A DNA stretch of 64,000 nucleotides, taken from contig JAFTGH010000054.1 of NCBI GenBank assembly GCA_017458005.1, positions 1 through 64,000 of the forward strand. Reading direction: 5' to 3'. This document shows, one piece after another, positions 10,517-27,119 of this stretch; position 1 is the stretch's first letter; each line of letters begins with the position of its first letter. Below the pieces are notes generated by a model that had not been told where the DNA came from, ran no database searches, and saw only the letters and a list, made by a program, of their open reading frames with translations. Position numbers and translations under genes: made by a program. This DNA comes from Prevotella sp. GTDB taxonomy: Bacteria > Bacteroidota > Bacteroidia > Bacteroidales > Bacteroidaceae.

Positions 10517-10532
10517 TGATACACTGTTTATG

Positions 10533-10599
10533 ATTTCACGCCACAAAGATACACTTTATCCTTTAAAATTCCAAATTTATTTGGTATTTTGCTCACTTA
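10533..10599 (-). repeat. 67-bp direct repeat, copy 1, carrying a promoter
   Basis: Identical over 67 bases to 11414-11480. On the minus strand it holds TTTGG, 19 bases, then TATCTTTG, which is a full Bacteroidota promoter, plus the start of the transcript. Here it drives the secreted protein at 9419-10516. Confidence 0.9.
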
Positions 10600-10624
10600 A
10601 TCACAATCACTGAGCCAAAGGCTC

Positions 10625-11397: not shown

Positions 11398-11413
11398 ATT
11401 TCTCTGTTTTTTT

Positions 11414-11480
11414 ATTTCACGCCACAAAGATACACTTTATCCTTTAAAATTCCAAATTTATTTGGTATTTTGCTCACTTA
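11414..11480 (-). repeat. 67-bp direct repeat, copy 2, carrying a promoter
   Basis: Second copy of the promoter-bearing repeat, 881 bases from copy 1 and without a single mismatch. It drives the 51-residue gene. Confidence 0.9.
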
Positions 11481-11565
11481 GTCGTACCTTTTGCACCAAT
11501 CCCTCACCGTTAAAACATCACAACTGCCATCCTAAGCAGTTGGAAGTGCCGTTATATTCAATGTA

Positions 11566-20346: not shown

Positions 20347-21498
20347 ATGTGGCAATTTATCATCGAAAACTTCAATGAGTTCCTGACCTATACGGGCTTT
20401 GCCAATGCCACGGCGGGAAACCTCATCATGATAGCAGTGGGGGCGCTCTTCATCTGGCTTGCCATCAAGAAAGACTTCGAACCACTGTTGCTGGTACCCA
20501 TTGGTCTGGGTATCATTCTTGGAAACATCCCTTTCCGTGCGGATGCCGGTCTTGAAATTGGACTCTATGAAGACAACTCAGTACTGAATATTTTTTATCA
20601 GGGAGTGCGTCAGGGATGGTATCCTCCTTTGATCTTCTTAGGCATCGGCGCGATGACGGACTTCTCCGCCTTGCTTGCCAATCCGAAACTGATGCTTATT
20701 GGTGCTGCTGCACAGTTTGGCATCTTCGGAGCCTATATGTTCGCCCTTGCTTTGGGTTTTGAGCCTAATCAGGCAGCAGGTATCGCCATCATCGGAGGAG
20801 CCGACGGTCCTACCGCCATCTTCCTCTCCAGCAAACTCTCCCCTAACCTGATGGGAGCCATTGCCGTCTGTGCCTATAGTTATATGGCATTGGTACCCCT
20901 GATTCAGCCACCATTGATGCGCCTGCTCACCACTAAGAAAGAGCGAGTCATCAAGATGAAACCAGCCCGTCAGGTATCACAGACAGAACGTATCCTGTTC
21001 CCCATCATCGGTTTGTTGCTCACGACATTCATCGTGCCTTCAGGTCTGCCCTTGCTGGGTATGCTCTTCTTCGGTAACCTGCTGAAGGAATCAGGAAAGA
21101 CAACCCGCCTTGCCAAGACGGCAGGTGCTGCGCTGAACGATATCGTCGTGATGCTGTTAGGTTTAACCGTCGGTTGCTCTACACAGGCCTCGGAGTTCCT
21201 AACCATCAATACCATCTACATTTTCGCTATCGGTGCTGGCGCCTTCATCATTGCCACCATGAGTGGTGTGCTATTCGTCAAAGTAATGAACCTCTTCCTG
21301 CCGAAAGACAAGAAACTGAACCCGCTGATTGGTAATGCCGGTGTGAGTGCCGTACCTATGGCTGCCCGCATCTCTAATAATCTCGGACTGGAATATGACC
21401 GCCATAACTTCCTGCTGATGCACGCCATGGGACCTAATGTGGCCGGCGTGATTGGCTCCGCGGTGGCAGCAGGAGCACTACTGGGATTCCTATCATAG
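20347..21498 (+). CDS. Sodium-translocating decarboxylase beta subunit
   Basis: A 383-residue integral membrane protein with about nine helices. It carries the conserved segments IIGGADGPTAIF (ligand-binding aspartate) and GNAGVSAVPMAARISN, both typical of OadB/MmdB. It decarboxylates carboxybiotin and exports sodium. The last gene of the unit, it ends at a strong terminator (21512-21549). With mutAB next door the natural substrate of the complex is methylmalonyl-CoA, giving propionyl-CoA and a sodium gradient; that link is inference from context. Confidence 0.93.
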   Translation: MWQFIIENFNEFLTYTGFANATAGNLIMIAVGALFIWLAIKKDFEPLLLVPIGLGIILGNIPFRADAGLEIGLYEDNSVLNIFYQGVRQGWYPPLIFLGIGAMTDFSALLANPKLMLIGAAAQFGIFGAYMFALALGFEPNQAAGIAIIGGADGPTAIFLSSKLSPNLMGAIAVCAYSYMALVPLIQPPLMRLLTTKKERVIKMKPARQVSQTERILFPIIGLLLTTFIVPSGLPLLGMLFFGNLLKESGKTTRLAKTAGAALNDIVVMLLGLTVGCSTQASEFLTINTIYIFAIGAGAFIIATMSGVLFVKVMNLFLPKDKKLNPLIGNAGVSAVPMAARISNNLGLEYDRHNFLLMHAMGPNVAGVIGSAVAAGALLGFLS

Positions 21499-21511
21499 AA
21501 TTACAATGATA

Positions 21512-21549
21512 AAAAAAGTGGCGATTCATGACGGAATTGCCACTTTTTT
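21512..21549 (+). terminator. Intrinsic terminator after the decarboxylase unit
   Basis: AAAAAAGTGGC (21512-21522) pairs with GCCACTTTTTT (21539-21549). Confidence 0.85.
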
Positions 21550-21551
21550 CG

Positions 21552-21559
21552 TATCTTTG
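21552..21559 (+). promoter_or_regulatory. -7 box of the signalling operon (TATCTTTG)
   Basis: Immediately downstream of the terminator and only 8 bases before the ATG at 21568, so the leader is extremely short or the mRNA nearly leaderless. Confidence 0.65.
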
Positions 21560-21567
21560 CAATCGTT

Positions 21568-21996
21568 ATGGATGCAAAGACACGACAATTAACCATCAAG
21601 AACGAAGTTGAGGAACTGACCAAACTTCCAGCGTTTGTCGATACCGTCTGCGAGGAAGCAGGAGTTGAAATGGCACTCATCGCCAGTCTGAACCTTGCCT
21701 TAGAGGAAGCGGTCACAAACGTGGTTCTGTATGCCTATCCTGACAGCGAGGGAACGGTGAGCATTGATGCCGTCTACACAAATGAGTATCTGAAATTCGT
21801 CATCACTGACAGCGGTATCGCCTTCGACCCTACGAAGAAAGAGGACGCAGACACCACGCTGAGTGCGGAGGAGCGTCCTATTGGCGGATTGGGCATCTTC
21901 CTCGTGCGACAGATCATGGACTCCGTCAACTACGAACGTATAGACGGACATAACATCCTGACAATTATCAAGAAAATAGAATCCACAAAGGAATAA
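21568..21996 (+). CDS. RsbW-like ATP-binding anti-sigma/kinase protein
   Basis: A 142-residue GHKL ATPase of the RsbW/SpoIIAB type: N box NLALEEAVTNVVLYAY (E46/E47, N51), G1 box ITDSGIAFDP and G2 box IGGLGIFLVRQIMD. Proteins of this class phosphorylate a serine on a STAS partner and release or bind a target accordingly. Two STAS proteins lie downstream in the same operon (23819, 24139), so a partner-switching module is well supported. No sigma factor is encoded in the operon, so the regulated target is unknown. It overlaps nothing and is 2 bases from the next gene. Confidence 0.88.
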   Translation: MDAKTRQLTIKNEVEELTKLPAFVDTVCEEAGVEMALIASLNLALEEAVTNVVLYAYPDSEGTVSIDAVYTNEYLKFVITDSGIAFDPTKKEDADTTLSAEERPIGGLGIFLVRQIMDSVNYERIDGHNILTIIKKIESTKE

Positions 21997-21998
21997 AC

Positions 21999-23792
21999 AT
22001 GGAGCATATCGCCATCTTCGGACTTAGCCTACAGGCATGGATTACCATCATCACGGTGATTGGTATCTTCGTGGTGATGGCTAAGACACGTATCCCTGCG
22101 GTAGTGGCTTTCCTCGGAGCAATGACGGTATTACTCGTTACAGGCATCGTAACGGAGTCGGAGGGAATGGCAGGCTTCGGCAGTGAGCCTGTAGTGGTAC
22201 ATGCGGCCTTCTTCGTCGTCATGGCTGGTCTGATGCAGACTGGTGTACTTTATTGGTTAACGAAGCACCTGTTGGGCAATCCCTCGAATCTCAAACAGGC
22301 TATCATTAAACTCACCATACCCATTGCCTCATTAGCAGCACTCCTCAACTCTGTCAACGTCGTCGCTCTATTCATTGATGTTGTGAAAATATGGGCAAAG
22401 AAATTAGGCACAGAGCCCTCACGCCTACTGGTTCCCCTCAGTTATGCCGCAACTTTAGGTGGTACTTGTACATTGATTGGCAACTCATCTAATCTGGTAA
22501 TTTCCGGACTCTATGCTGACCAGACAGGTACAGCCTTGGGACTCTTTACCCCATTCTTCCCCGGACTGTTTATCACGGTTATTGGATGTGTCCTTCTCCT
22601 CCTTTTCCGTAACATGATTCCCCGTCGTCAGTCACCAGAGACCTCATTCGAGATGACTAGTGATTATACGGTAGAATTGTTAGTGCCGACAGAAAACGAG
22701 GCTGTTGGCATGACTATCAATGAGGCAGGACTGCGCAACGTACGAGGCGGATCACTGATTGAGATTGTACGTTTTGACAAAGAGATTATCGCACCAGTGC
22801 CCAAGGATGAGTTTATTTTAGGTGGTGACCGCCTGATATACTCTGGACAGATTAATGAGATCCTCGAACTGAAACGCTCTCATGGTCTGGTGGCAGCCGA
22901 CCATCATGTATATAGCATCAGTGAGATTGACAACAACCGCAAGATGCGTACCGCCTATATCGGCTTTGGCAGCGACCTGATAGGTTCTCGCATGAGTGAC
23001 AATGAGTTTGAGCGCCGCACCGACTTGGTGCTAGTGGCTGTTGCACGTCAGGGAAAACGTGTAAACATACAGCCCCGTGAGGTTGAACTGGAGGCTGGCG
23101 ACACACTGCTGTTGGAATGTCCACCCAAGGACGACCGAGAGATTGACGAACTGACGAAGGGTAGTCTGACGTTCTTCGACTCTCATTTCGTACCCCAGTT
23201 AGGCAAGAAGACCATCTACTCTTCCTTAATCCTTGTGACAATGTTCATTTTGTCATCATTACATATCATGCCACTGATGGCTACGACGATGCTTGCCGCT
23301 GGTGCCATGATAGCATTGAAATGCTGTCGTGCCCAGAATGTGACGAAATACATTGAATGGGATCTCTTACTCATATTAGGCGCTACCGTTGTATTCAGTA
23401 CCGCCATCACCAAGACAGGCATTGCCAATGTCGTCGCGAGTCAGGTGTTACAGATTTGCGGGCATAACCCTCTTATCATCATGATTGTGTTGTGTGTTCT
23501 CGCCTCCCTGGTCAGTGAGTTTGTCAGTGATGTCGGAGCAAGTGGCATCTTCTTTCCTATCGCCTATCAGGCAGCGATAGATTTGGGCTGTAACCCTATG
23601 CCCTTTGTCGTTTCCTTGATGCTTGCCGTAACGACGAGTTTCTCGTCACCTATCGGCTCCAGCACCCATATGCTCATCTATGGTCCTGGTGGTTTCAAAT
23701 TCACCGACTTCATGAAGATCGGTCTGTTGATGCATGTGATCCTTTTGGCAGCCAACCTGCTGATTGTAAATATCGTATATCCGTTGTATTAA
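21999..23792 (+). CDS. SLC13-family permease with two RCK_C domains
   Basis: A 597-residue transporter of the ArsB/CitT/SLC13 superfamily. The two membrane halves (residues 1-205 and about 400-597) carry the paired motifs TCTLIGNSSNLVISG and SSPIGSSTHMLIYGPGG. Between them lie two RCK_C domains (LVPTENEAVGMTINEAGLRN; SRMSDNEFERRTDLVLVAV...EAGDTLLLECPP), which bind regulatory ligands in related channels. The family moves dicarboxylates, citrate or sulfate with sodium. It starts 2 bases after the RsbW-like gene, so the transporter and the partner switch are made together, which is unusual. The substrate is not determinable. Confidence 0.87.
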   Translation: MEHIAIFGLSLQAWITIITVIGIFVVMAKTRIPAVVAFLGAMTVLLVTGIVTESEGMAGFGSEPVVVHAAFFVVMAGLMQTGVLYWLTKHLLGNPSNLKQAIIKLTIPIASLAALLNSVNVVALFIDVVKIWAKKLGTEPSRLLVPLSYAATLGGTCTLIGNSSNLVISGLYADQTGTALGLFTPFFPGLFITVIGCVLLLLFRNMIPRRQSPETSFEMTSDYTVELLVPTENEAVGMTINEAGLRNVRGGSLIEIVRFDKEIIAPVPKDEFILGGDRLIYSGQINEILELKRSHGLVAADHHVYSISEIDNNRKMRTAYIGFGSDLIGSRMSDNEFERRTDLVLVAVARQGKRVNIQPREVELEAGDTLLLECPPKDDREIDELTKGSLTFFDSHFVPQLGKKTIYSSLILVTMFILSSLHIMPLMATTMLAAGAMIALKCCRAQNVTKYIEWDLLLILGATVVFSTAITKTGIANVVASQVLQICGHNPLIIMIVLCVLASLVSEFVSDVGASGIFFPIAYQAAIDLGCNPMPFVVSLMLAVTTSFSSPIGSSTHMLIYGPGGFKFTDFMKIGLLMHVILLAANLLIVNIVYPLY

Positions 23793-23818
23793 ATATAAAA
23801 CATTAAATATTTAGGCTT

Positions 23819-24127
23819 ATGAAGACTACATTCCGAGAAGAGAACGGCAAATACATTGCCACATTGGAAGGACGACTCGACACGGTTGCCTCAGAGCAGA
23901 CCGCAAAAGATTTGGCCCCCCTGAATGACTGTACTGGTCATGACATTATCATCGACTGCACTAACTTAGAGTATATCAGCAGTTCTGGTTTACGTATTCT
24001 GCTGAATATCCGAAAGAATGCCGCAGCCGTGGGCAGTAAGGTAACAATACTGAATATCAACGATGAGATTCAGAAAGTATTCATGATGACAGGATTCAGT
24101 AGTTTGTTTGACGTACAAAACCAATAA
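23819..24127 (+). CDS. STAS-domain anti-sigma-factor antagonist (first of two)
   Basis: A 102-residue single STAS domain with the RsbV/SpoIIAA core: EGRLDTVASEQ, IIIDCTNLEYISSSGLRILL. The serine stretch at 54-56 holds the expected phosphorylation site (S55 by alignment to DSxG). It ends MMTGFSSLFDVQNQ. In partner switching the unphosphorylated form captures the RsbW-like kinase. It and the next gene are tandem paralogues separated by 11 bases. The DSSG of Bacillus proteins is SSSG here. Confidence 0.9.
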   Translation: MKTTFREENGKYIATLEGRLDTVASEQTAKDLAPLNDCTGHDIIIDCTNLEYISSSGLRILLNIRKNAAAVGSKVTILNINDEIQKVFMMTGFSSLFDVQNQ

Positions 24128-24138
24128 AGATATAAATT

Positions 24139-24441
24139 ATGACTATCGAGATTAAAGAACAAAACGGTGGTTACACCGCACAGTTAATTGGCAGACTTGA
24201 CACTCCTGCCGCTGTACAGGCAACAAAAGACATGCAACCCCTGATGGAGCATGCCGACAAAGAGATCACACTGGACTGCGAGCAACTCGATTACATCAGC
24301 AGTTCTGGACTGCGCCTATTCCTGACACTTCGCAAAGAGACTGCTGCAAAAGGCGGTAAGGTTGTCATCGAGAAAATCAATGATGAGATCAAGAAGGTGT
24401 TCATGATGACAGGTTTCTATAACCTCTTCGAGATCAAATAA
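24139..24441 (+). CDS. STAS-domain anti-sigma-factor antagonist (second of two)
   Basis: A 100-residue paralogue of the preceding STAS protein with the same landmarks (IGRLDTPAAVQ, LDYISSSGLRLFL, KKVFMMTGFYNLFEIK) and its candidate phosphoserine at S55. The pair most likely arose by tandem duplication. Two antagonists for one kinase could give graded or two-input control; that is inference. It is followed after 2 bases by the RelA/SpoT gene. Confidence 0.9.
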   Translation: MTIEIKEQNGGYTAQLIGRLDTPAAVQATKDMQPLMEHADKEITLDCEQLDYISSSGLRLFLTLRKETAAKGGKVVIEKINDEIKKVFMMTGFYNLFEIK

Positions 24442-24443
24442 GG

Positions 24444-25538
24444 ATGAAGGACTACGGACTGGATCTGCACTGTACGATGCTGTTGGAAGACTATCGGGAG
24501 AGGCTCCCGATATATCAGCAACTTCAGCAGGTGGTGATGGGCAAACTGAGTGAGTTGGTCAAGCGTGCAGGTATTGAACTGAACGCTATGGAGTCACGTA
24601 TTAAAGCAGAAGACTCCCTGGCAGGAAAACTGGAGCGCAAAGGATCGAAATACCGCACCCTTGACGACATCACAGACATCTTCGGGGCACGTATCATCAC
24701 GTTCTACAATGAAGATGTAGACCGCATCGCATCCATGGCAGAGACGTTGTTTGACATAGACTGGTCGAACTCCATCGACAAGCGGAAGATGCACCAGTTT
24801 GACAGTTTTGGCTATAACTCTCTACATTACATCTGCAAACTTCCTAAACAACTGTACTATGATGAGAAGAATCCTCAACTGAACGAGATTCCCTTCGAGT
24901 TACAGATGCGAACAGCATTACAGCATGTATGGTCAGCCATCCAGCATGACATCGGCTACAAGAGCGATATTGAGATGCCTGTGGAGTATCATCGCAACCT
25001 AAGTCGTCTCGCAGGTTTGCTGGAGTTAGCCGATAACGAGTTCAGCCGTATCCGCAGCGACATCAGTGATTACCGCAGACGCATCGAAAGTCTGGTGAAA
25101 GACGGAAAACTGGAAGAGGTTCTCCTCGACGGTGACACTTTCCGTACGTATGTCGACATGCAGCCTTTCGACAAGTTGAACAAACAGATTGCGGCAATCA
25201 CACAAGCAGAATTACATCCAGCCTCACCCATGCCTTATCTCCCACTCCTACGTGCTTTGGGGATGAACACATTGGGAGACATTGAGCGCATGATCAATGA
25301 GAACTATGAGGATGCCTATCAGTTAGCGCTATTCCAATTGGGCTCCACTGATATTGATATCCTCTCTTCAAATATCGGCTTGCAAAATCTCTGCATTGTC
25401 CATATTCTGAAGGCAGACGGAGGAAAACAAGGTATTCGCTGGATGTTTGACATCATCAATGGCAAATCTGAGAACAACGGCGACATGGCTCAGATGATTA
25501 TGGAACAAGCGTCCAAACTCGCTTTCATGAACAAATAA
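24444..25538 (+). CDS. RelA/SpoT-type nucleotide synthetase without hydrolase domain
   Basis: A 364-residue protein with a (p)ppGpp synthetase fold in its first half: SRIKAEDSLAGKLERKG, DDITDIFGARIITFY, FGYNSLHYI and the catalytic-type FELQMRTALQHVWSAIQHD. There is no HD hydrolase, TGS or ACT domain. The second half (about 180-364) is a helical extension of unknown role. Small alarmone synthetases make (p)ppGpp or pppApp-like nucleotides independently of the ribosome. The start is 2 bases after the second STAS gene, implying coupled expression. Which nucleotide it makes, or whether the synthetase is only a regulated domain, cannot be told. Confidence 0.85.
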   Translation: MKDYGLDLHCTMLLEDYRERLPIYQQLQQVVMGKLSELVKRAGIELNAMESRIKAEDSLAGKLERKGSKYRTLDDITDIFGARIITFYNEDVDRIASMAETLFDIDWSNSIDKRKMHQFDSFGYNSLHYICKLPKQLYYDEKNPQLNEIPFELQMRTALQHVWSAIQHDIGYKSDIEMPVEYHRNLSRLAGLLELADNEFSRIRSDISDYRRRIESLVKDGKLEEVLLDGDTFRTYVDMQPFDKLNKQIAAITQAELHPASPMPYLPLLRALGMNTLGDIERMINENYEDAYQLALFQLGSTDIDILSSNIGLQNLCIVHILKADGGKQGIRWMFDIINGKSENNGDMAQMIMEQASKLAFMNK

Positions 25539-25548
25539 ACGAGACTCT

Positions 25549-26154
25549 ATGGAACATATGCCACAAGGAAGACCGCTCGTCGCTGTTATTGATACGAACA
25601 CATTGGCAGCACTCGGTCTCAAGCAAATTCTACAGAACGTCATGCCTATCATGACGGTAGATACGTATGGCTCTTTCGCCGAACTGGAAGCCAATCATCC
25701 AGATAAGTATATCCATTATTTTGTGGCTATGAATATTGTCTTGCAAGAAAGACAATTCTTTCAGGAAAGACAACGAAAGACCATTGTCCTGACCCTCCAG
25801 TTAGAAGAAACCGCACAACTGTCGGAGTTCCATAGTTTATGTATCAACCAACCTGAGCCACAACTGATTCGCCAACTATTGATGTTGGAGCAGCATGCGC
25901 ATGGAGGGGGAAAGAATCTGCCCCCGTTACCCAAAGTACTGCAACAGAAGATACTGACCGACCGTGAGATTGAGGTGATGTCCCTCATCGTCCAAGGATA
26001 TATCAACAAAGAGATAGCCGACAAGTTGAATATCGGACTTGCAACCGTCATCACCCATCGCAAGAATATCATGGATAAGTTGGGAATGAAAAGCGTATCC
26101 GCACTCACTATATATGCAGTGATGCACGGATACGTAGATATCAATAATATTTAG
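25549..26154 (+). CDS. LuxR-type regulator with a degenerate receiver-like domain
   Basis: A 201-residue protein. Residues about 8-115 look like a receiver fold (PLVAVIDTNTLAALGLKQIL), but the strand that should hold the phosphoacceptor aspartate reads YIHYFVAMNIVL, with no acidic residue. Residues about 135-197 are a LuxR/GerE helix-turn-helix: LTDREIEVMSLIVQG, NKEIADKLNI, TVITHRKNIMDKLG. It is the last gene of the partner-switch operon, 10 bases after the RelA/SpoT gene. Its DNA-binding domain matches 36 of 64 positions in that of the hemerythrin-LuxR protein facing it across a 5-base gap. Confidence 0.85.
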   Translation: MEHMPQGRPLVAVIDTNTLAALGLKQILQNVMPIMTVDTYGSFAELEANHPDKYIHYFVAMNIVLQERQFFQERQRKTIVLTLQLEETAQLSEFHSLCINQPEPQLIRQLLMLEQHAHGGGKNLPPLPKVLQQKILTDREIEVMSLIVQGYINKEIADKLNIGLATVITHRKNIMDKLGMKSVSALTIYAVMHGYVDINNI

Positions 26155-26159
26155 TAACC

Positions 26160-27119
26160 TTACAACTTAACGGCGGAAATATCGACAAGTCCGTTGACAA
26201 TAGCATAGATGGTCAGTCCCGCCGGGGAATGAATCTGTAACTTTCGGGCAATATTCCTACGATGCGTAATAACTGTGTTTGTTGAGATACAGAGATGGTC
26301 GGCTATCTCCTTATTAGACATACCCTGCACCAAGGATATGATCACATCCCTCTCACGGTCAGACAAAGCGTCACTATTATCCTGTCCGCTCTTAAAGACC
26401 ATTGAGGAGATATTCTTCGTCACATCATTCTGCTTCTGCTGGGCTTCCAAACGACGGACGGCAGGCACGAATATCTGATCCTCCACCTCCGCATGCAACT
26501 TCAGCCACTCCTCATTATTATAAATATCATAAAGGGTCGCCGTCAACTTATTGTTGCTATGGGGATCGGAAGGCAGGTATTTGATAATCATCAACTTCAA
26601 CTCACGCAATGCCTTATCCGTCGACTCATGGTGCTTTGAGAAAGTCTCCACGTTATAGTCATTCATCGCACGTCCCTCCAACAAGGCTGTCACATAAGGG
26701 AAGAGAGTCTTCTCCTCATACTTCATGTGACGCTGTATCTCACGGGCATAGCCGTCATAGAACTTCATGATCAGGTGACCCAAAGAGTCTTTCTCATCAA
26801 AACTCTCGGCAAGTTGCCTACGGATTGACGGTAATTGGAAGTCCAGGAAGTAAGCGTGGCTGGCATCTAGGTAATGAAGCAAGGTATGGACATCTATCTG
26901 CTCATCCTCATTATAATTAGAATACCCATTAATAATGAAGTTCACCACAGCAAGGAAAGTATAGGTATCCACTTGGTTCATCTCACACGTCTCCTGTACG
27001 GTCTTATCTCCAAATCCGAGATTGATACCAAAACTACCTAAAGCCTGCAACAGGTTATAGTCGTCCTTGATAAGCGTTATCATCTTATCACTAGGTTCAT
27101 ACATCTTCAAATTCTTCAT
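26160..27119 (-). CDS. Hemerythrin/RIC di-iron domain fused to a LuxR DNA-binding domain
   Basis: A 319-residue protein starting at ATG 27119; a longer in-frame start at 27155 would overlap the promoter. Residues 15-70 resemble the RIC (YtfE/ScdA) N-terminal domain, but the usual CCGG is LGFG. Residues about 75-225 are a hemerythrin-like bundle with candidate iron ligands H88, H131, E135, H163/H164, H209 and E213 (SHAYFLDFQLP, HMKYEEKTLFP, LHAEVEDQIFVP). Residues 250-319 are a LuxR helix-turn-helix (LSDRERDVIISLVQG, TVITHRRNI). It would act as a one-component sensor of oxygen, nitric oxide or iron status. It diverges from the porin-imelysin-cytochrome operon, its probable target. Confidence 0.9.
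   Translation of the reverse strand: MKNLKMYEPSDKMITLIKDDYNLLQALGSFGINLGFGDKTVQETCEMNQVDTYTFLAVVNFIINGYSNYNEDEQIDVHTLLHYLDASHAYFLDFQLPSIRRQLAESFDEKDSLGHLIMKFYDGYAREIQRHMKYEEKTLFPYVTALLEGRAMNDYNVETFSKHHESTDKALRELKLMIIKYLPSDPHSNNKLTATLYDIYNNEEWLKLHAEVEDQIFVPAVRRLEAQQKQNDVTKNISSMVFKSGQDNSDALSDRERDVIISLVQGMSNKEIADHLCISTNTVITHRRNIARKLQIHSPAGLTIYAIVNGLVDISAVKL

What the first reader, a model, noticed from the sequence alone, without database searches (positions are those of the whole stretch)
21568..26154. Partner-switch kinase, RCK-gated transporter, two STAS proteins, an alarmone synthetase and a pseudo-receiver regulator in one operon
Six genes read the same way with gaps of 2, 26, 11, 2 and 10 bases behind one TATCTTTG promoter. 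Domain calls are firm (GHKL N and G boxes; STAS ISSSGL; RelA/SpoT synthetase without HD; SLC13 with two RCK_C). Established: RsbW-type kinases and STAS antagonists switch partners, and RelA/SpoT synthetases make (p)ppGpp-type messengers. What appears undescribed is the combination. There is no sigma factor to control, so the switch may control the synthetase, the transporter, or the LuxR protein. A sodium-dicarboxylate transporter gated by nucleotides and tied to alarmone production would link carbon supply to a starvation signal.
Basis: partly seen in the sequence, partly recalled or inferred. Interest (0 to 1): 0.72.

Follow-up and report, generated by a model that had tools for sequence, protein, structure and literature searches.

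The report
Protein-switch cassette beside a stress-signal enzyme
A gut bacterium carries a protein on/off switch right next to an enzyme that should make a starvation signal, and many related gut bacteria keep the two side by side with changing sensors and transporters around them, which suggests that outside cues set the signal through this switch.

The parts
21512..21549 (+). terminator-like hairpin (16 pairs) between oadB and the operon
21552..21559 (+). TATCTTTG, Bacteroidales-type -7 promoter box; no match to the two-box pattern here
   Evidence: promoter type recalled
21568..21996 (+). GHKL serine kinase of RsbW/SpoIIAB type (142 aa); N box EEAVTN, G boxes DSG and GGLG
   Evidence: N-box E and N in 138 of 138 aligned homologues
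21999..23792 (+). SLC13/DASS-type transporter with two cytoplasmic TrkA_C (RCK_C) domains (597 aa)
23819..24127 (+). STAS1 (102 aa), S55 phospho-acceptor position; type found beside the SLC13 gene
24139..24441 (+). STAS2 (100 aa), S55; type found next to the LuxR gene in synthetase-free loci
24444..25538 (+). small alarmone synthetase (364 aa): RelP/RelQ-like domain (about residues 1-212) plus a mostly helical C-terminal domain (about 216-364)
25549..26154 (+). LuxR/NarL-type HTH regulator (201 aa); core gene of the genus, probably older at this place than the cassette
26160..27119 (-). hemerythrin-HTH (HHE-LuxR) regulator, convergent neighbour that often pairs with the LuxR gene; not part of the cassette
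20347..21498 (+). oadB-type Na+-transporting decarboxylase beta subunit; frequent upstream neighbour, not part of the cassette

Best explanation
A partner-switching phosphorelay whose output is an enzyme rather than a sigma factor. The GHKL kinase phosphorylates the STAS proteins on S55; a Cache-PP2C sensor phosphatase (inside the locus in many relatives, in trans here) removes the phosphate when it senses an extracytoplasmic ligand. The phosphorylation state of STAS2 (and STAS1) decides whether it binds the small alarmone synthetase, and so whether (p)ppGpp-type alarmone is made. In relatives an alarmone-hydrolase-like gene at the same locus would reset the signal. Shown: gene content, conserved kinase and phospho-site residues, recurrent STAS-synthetase adjacency, RelP/RelQ-like fold (predicted). 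Inferred: STAS-synthetase binding, the direction of control, the phosphatase acting in trans, the product, and the role of the SLC13/RCK transporter.
Against: No binding or phosphorylation data. 27 of 82 full-flank genus loci, 4 of 9 order loci (two of them weak homologues) and 7 of 61 named loci have the synthetase without same-strand STAS near. The C-terminal domain is no less conserved in those than in linked ones (mean entropy 1.32 in 32 against 1.52 in 123, sizes not corrected), so it shows no STAS-docking signature. STAS stands before LuxR without a synthetase in 5 of 40 chosen LuxR loci. The window operon lacks the phosphatase. Shared descent explains part of the counts: STAS adjacency needs at least 16 changes on a FastTree tree of 173 (no shuffle control, no support check), so loci are not independent.
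Confidence: 0.55

Rival explanations
1. The switch controls the LuxR-type regulator (or both LuxR and the synthetase); the synthetase is a passenger gene between STAS2 and LuxR and is regulated only by co-transcription.
For: Kinase or sensor, with or without transporter genes, then STAS, then LuxR, without a synthetase in L334, L335, L353, L355, L358: 5 of 40 chosen loci. The STAS next to LuxR is nearer STAS2 in all five. LuxR is in 247 of 298 genomes.
Against: LuxR lies near the synthetase in only 31 of 173 loci, 3 changes on the tree, while STAS is adjacent in 107 of 173. In 35 of the 40 chosen LuxR loci no STAS was found in the stretch fetched (four of those stretches are short, under 6.2 kb).
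Confidence: 0.2
2. The switch controls the transporter: STAS1 acts on the SLC13/RCK protein, and STAS2-synthetase is a second, loosely linked unit.
For: The STAS next to SLC13 scores nearer STAS1 than STAS2 in 12 of 12 SLC13-STAS-SAS loci including the window, some by a small margin and some probably the same species in two sets. SLC13 presence needs at least 13 changes for 16 loci on the tree. STAS domains are part of SLC26/SulP anion transporters (PMC8256260, abstract seen).
Against: In L203/L141, L209, L229, L230 and L289 a single STAS1-like gene stands between SLC13 and the synthetase and would have to serve both. Only 7 of 22 genomes with a full-length SLC13 hit of at least 60% identity have it within about 5 kb of a synthetase (compared by eye; G597, in two pieces, left out).
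Confidence: 0.12
3. The synthetase is a toxSAS/CapRel-like toxin or defence effector and the neighbours are its antidote or trigger.
For: An HD_4 gene near the synthetase in 19 of 82, 7 of 9 and 26 of 61 full-flank loci; weak PADLOC hit to candidate PDC-S33, E=1e-14.
Confidence: 0.07
4. Positional clustering without functional coupling.
For: Gene order around the core is fluid.
Against: Adjacency in more than half of the genus and named loci read, although this genome holds only 4 STAS matches.
Confidence: 0.06

Closest known systems
SiaABCD of Pseudomonas aeruginosa (phosphatase SiaA, kinase SiaB, STAS-like SiaC, diguanylate cyclase SiaD)
   Same: sensor phosphatase + kinase + small phosphoprotein + second-messenger synthase (PMC8457831, passages); the sensor of relative L077 has the SiaA model as its best NCBIfam hit, E=1e-18, 67 bits against a cut-off of 700
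   Different: output here is an alarmone synthetase; SiaC is DUF1987, only structurally related to STAS; the window operon lacks the phosphatase
HsbR-HsbA-HsbD (P. aeruginosa) and BgrV-BgrR (Sinorhizobium meliloti)
   Same: a STAS protein controls a nucleotide-messenger synthase by its phosphorylation state (PMC8457831, PMC5085249, passages)
   Different: diguanylate cyclase instead of RelA/SpoT-type synthetase
RsbU-RsbW-RsbV / SpoIIE-SpoIIAB-SpoIIAA
   Same: GHKL kinase, STAS with S55, PP2C phosphatase in relatives
   Different: no sigma factor among the ten neighbours scanned; RsbW and SpoIIAB equivalog cut-offs not reached (58.7 against 145; 40.8 against 135 bits)
RelP/RelQ small alarmone synthetases (YwaC/YjbM)
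   Different: extra C-terminal domain of about 150 residues; NCBIfam YjbM cut-off not met (64.6 against 320 bits)

Membership tests
RsbU/V/W-type partner switch | GHKL kinase with intact N and G boxes | tested here: met
RsbU/V/W-type partner switch | STAS antagonist with phosphorylatable Ser | tested here: met
   153 of 153 aligned STAS, (site assigned from recalled SpoIIAA/RsbV)
RsbU/V/W-type partner switch | PP2C phosphatase in the locus | tested here: not met
   none in the 20 kb around the window operon; present in many relatives and elsewhere in this genome
RsbU/V/W-type partner switch | sigma factor as target | tested here: not met
   no sigma-factor family above cut-off among the ten neighbouring proteins scanned; rest of the window and genome not scanned for sigma factors
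RsbU/V/W-type partner switch | phosphorylation-dependent partner exchange | not testable with these tools
   needs biochemistry
Small alarmone synthetase (RelP/RelQ type) | RelA_SpoT synthetase domain, no HD domain | tested here: met
Small alarmone synthetase (RelP/RelQ type) | conserved catalytic residues | tested here: met
   16 columns kept in 155 of 155; choice of columns partly by construction and from recalled motifs
Small alarmone synthetase (RelP/RelQ type) | RelQ equivalog score (NF053588) | tested here: not met
   64.6 against 320 bits
Small alarmone synthetase (RelP/RelQ type) | makes (p)ppGpp | not testable with these tools
   needs an enzyme assay
toxSAS / CapRel | fold nearer to tRNA-pyrophosphorylating toxins than to RelP/RelQ | tested here: inconclusive
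SLC13/DASS transporter with RCK_C domains | CitMHS/Na_sulph_symp membrane domain plus TrkA_C pair | tested here: met
   TIGR00785 cut-off not reached (77.1 against 198.6 bits)
NarL-type response regulator with pseudo-receiver | receiver fold at the N-terminus | tested here: inconclusive
   only the HTH half matches; structure job never accepted

The most novel reading that the evidence does not exclude
A widespread, modular Bacteroidales signalling system in which an extracytoplasmic Cache-PP2C/GHKL partner switch drives alarmone synthesis (and, through a linked hydrolase, its removal) by direct STAS control of a small alarmone synthetase, with plug-in modules (SLC13-RCK transporter, ABC-2 transporter, NMT1-type binding protein) for the ligand side. 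It would be the first phosphoswitch-controlled alarmone synthetase known to me.
Probability: 0.45. Interest if true: 0.75.

Novelty: new variant of a known kind. Interest (0 to 1): 0.6.

Why it matters
How small alarmone synthetases are switched on post-translationally is poorly known, and Bacteroidales partner switches have few known targets (both from general knowledge). If true, ligands sensed outside the cell would set an alarmone level by a reversible serine phosphorylation in gut and rumen bacteria, and four small soluble proteins would suffice to test it. A 2011 survey lists only Rel and RshB, no small synthetase, for its 8 Bacteroidia (PMC3153485, passages). I found no paper that links a partner switch to an alarmone synthetase in the searches (listings seen; of the papers listed there only passages of PMC3153485 and PMC8256260 were read); the library holds open-licence PMC papers only.

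Tried and rejected
LuxR as a member of the cassette: rejected, because it is far more widespread than the synthetase and in 9 of 40 chosen loci directly follows oadB without a cassette. Exact six-gene order as the conserved unit: rejected. C-terminal domain as a STAS-specific dock: no signature found; columns Q314, N315 and A196 differ between linked and unlinked, weakly. STAS-synthetase fusion: the long L117 protein shows only RelA_SpoT. Fold of the C-terminal domain: the whole-model search is filled by the synthetase half; the separate prediction failed and could not be repeated, so it is untested. Presence beyond the order: 4 of 198 phylum genomes match at E<=1e-30, own included, the other three only within about residues 8-242.

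Limits of the counts. Genus loci are the 115 places other than the window in 108 genomes; some genomes have two copies and G405 two fragments. The genus set and the 80 named loci share species, so their counts must not be added, and the 153 STAS and 138 GHKL hold such repeats. Context HMMs were built from the named loci themselves (SpoIIE from three sequences, Cache from two); gene calls are simple ORF calls; the PP2C-GHKL pattern does not require a Cache part. Only same-strand neighbours were counted. The tree left out L186, L187, L302, L117, rows under 300 aa or with under 500 bases upstream, and 27 near-identical rows (200 to 173). One search left out 18 rows without STAS and without full flanks. 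The 40 LuxR loci were chosen (20 genomes without a synthetase, 20 with one elsewhere), not random.
Full report
WHAT IS THERE. A 16-pair terminator-like hairpin separates them from oadB and a TATCTTTG box ends 8 bases before the first ATG. The two-box promoter pattern has no match here, and weaker terminator-like matches lie inside the SLC13 gene, so a single transcript is likely but unproven. The genome is 3.05 Mb in 66 contigs; the best named relative has a 91% identical synthetase and is titled Prevotella sp. UBA2755.

THE CORE IS STAS + SYNTHETASE. Homologues of the synthetase (E<=1e-20, own genome included) are in 108 of 299 genomes of the genus, 71 of 399 of the family and 11 of 393 of the order. 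I read the context of all 115 other genus places, of 10 order places and of the 80 named loci. A STAS gene lies within 320 bases upstream in 70 of 113, 5 of 10 and 54 of 79 of those with at least 500 bases upstream. With 5 kb on both sides, same-strand GHKL is near in 46 of 82, 5 of 9 and 49 of 61; SpoIIE-type PP2C in 27, 5 and 36; HD_4 in 19, 7 and 26. On a FastTree tree of 173 synthetases STAS adjacency (107 loci) needs at least 16 changes, LuxR (31) 3, HD_4 (62) 18 and SLC13 (16) 13. I ran no shuffles and the method cannot tell gain from loss. I read it as a STAS link that mostly follows descent, LuxR as nearly confined to one part of the tree, and SLC13 as joining or leaving repeatedly.

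WHAT THE NEIGHBOURS ARE. Pfam on representatives shows the large upstream protein to be a Cache-(HAMP)-SpoIIE-GHKL sensor (L077, L151), that is, phosphatase and kinase in one chain, or Cache-HAMP-SpoIIE with a separate kinase (L097). Other neighbours are an HD_4 protein related to small alarmone hydrolases, an APH-type kinase, a tyrosine-phosphatase-like protein, an NMT1-type binding protein, and an ABC-2 transporter with a 267-aa gene whose only NCBIfam hit is a sub-cut-off lipoprotein model. The direct order PP2C-GHKL, STAS, synthetase occurs in 20 of 115, 1 of 10 and 23 of 80; ABC-C9-(GHKL)-STAS-synthetase in 21, 0 and 16; SLC13-STAS-synthetase in 6, 0 and 5 besides the window; the exact six genes in 1, 0 and 2.

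THE LUXR GENE. It is in 247 of 298 genus genomes. In the 40 loci that I chose it directly follows oadB in 9 and is fused in frame to it in one (L370); it follows a STAS without any synthetase in 5. I read the window as a cassette placed between oadB and an older LuxR/HHE-LuxR pair. Whether the switch also acts on LuxR is open.

TWO STAS PROTEINS. STAS1 and STAS2 are 54% identical. In 12 of 12 SLC13-STAS-synthetase loci, window included, the STAS beside SLC13 scores closer to STAS1, in some by a small margin; the STAS beside LuxR in the five synthetase-free loci is closer to STAS2. The window therefore looks like two cassettes merged: GHKL-SLC13-STAS1 and STAS2-synthetase(-LuxR). This is inference.

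THE MISSING PHOSPHATASE. This genome has seven SpoIIE-family matches, five of them strong. One (L173 7258-9255, minus strand) is a Cache-HAMP-PP2C without kinase, beside an NMT1-type protein, 62% identical to a sensor in the STAS-synthetase locus L098. A separate PP2C-GHKL-STAS set lies on contig 51, with no synthetase in the 18 kb read. Either could serve in trans; this is inference.

MECHANISM. Kinase and PP2C set the S55 phosphorylation of STAS; STAS contacts the synthetase directly. Precedent for the last step is the control of diguanylate cyclases by HsbA, BgrV and SiaC (PMC8457831 and PMC5085249, passages read). Which form of STAS activates is unknown: HsbD contacts phosphorylated HsbA, SiaD is activated by unphosphorylated SiaC. 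The link to carbon supply (SLC13, oadB) is suggestive only.

AGAINST. No biochemical evidence; 27 of 82, 4 of 9 and 7 of 61 full-flank loci have no same-strand STAS near the synthetase, and some of those sit in other settings such as next to FAD-oxidase and lactate-permease-like genes. The C-terminal domain shows no STAS-linked signature; STAS-LuxR pairs exist without a synthetase. Hence 0.55.

Noticed in passing
L200, L202, L207, L208, L127: A synthetase without STAS overlaps a large FAD-oxidase-like gene next to a lactate-permease-like gene (names by eye from sequence), a different setting for the same enzyme. L200 and L127 look like the same species.
   Followed up: partly
L120, L133: Two loci come from MAGs titled Fibrobacter sp. 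(horse faeces), with a close synthetase and HD_4-type genes; transfer between phyla or mis-binning.
   Followed up: partly
L370: oadB and the LuxR gene are in one 581-aa open frame.
   Followed up: no
window 21552-21568: The -7 box ends 8 bases before the ATG of the kinase gene; the transcript may be leaderless.
   Followed up: no
window 10527-10602 and 11408-11483: A 76-base stretch with a promoter-like match is repeated 881 bases apart, 96% identical; a 375-aa secreted-looking ORF follows one copy.
   Followed up: partly
L172 5702-9553 (own genome, contig 51): A second switch set: TPR-PP2C, GHKL, STAS, then a HATPase protein, with no synthetase in the stretch read.
   Followed up: partly
L151 10527-11363: The APH-type kinase next to many of these synthetases is close to TIGR02172, just under its cut-off (221.2 against 228.2 bits), and is fused to the HD_4 domain in some loci such as L097.
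   Followed up: no
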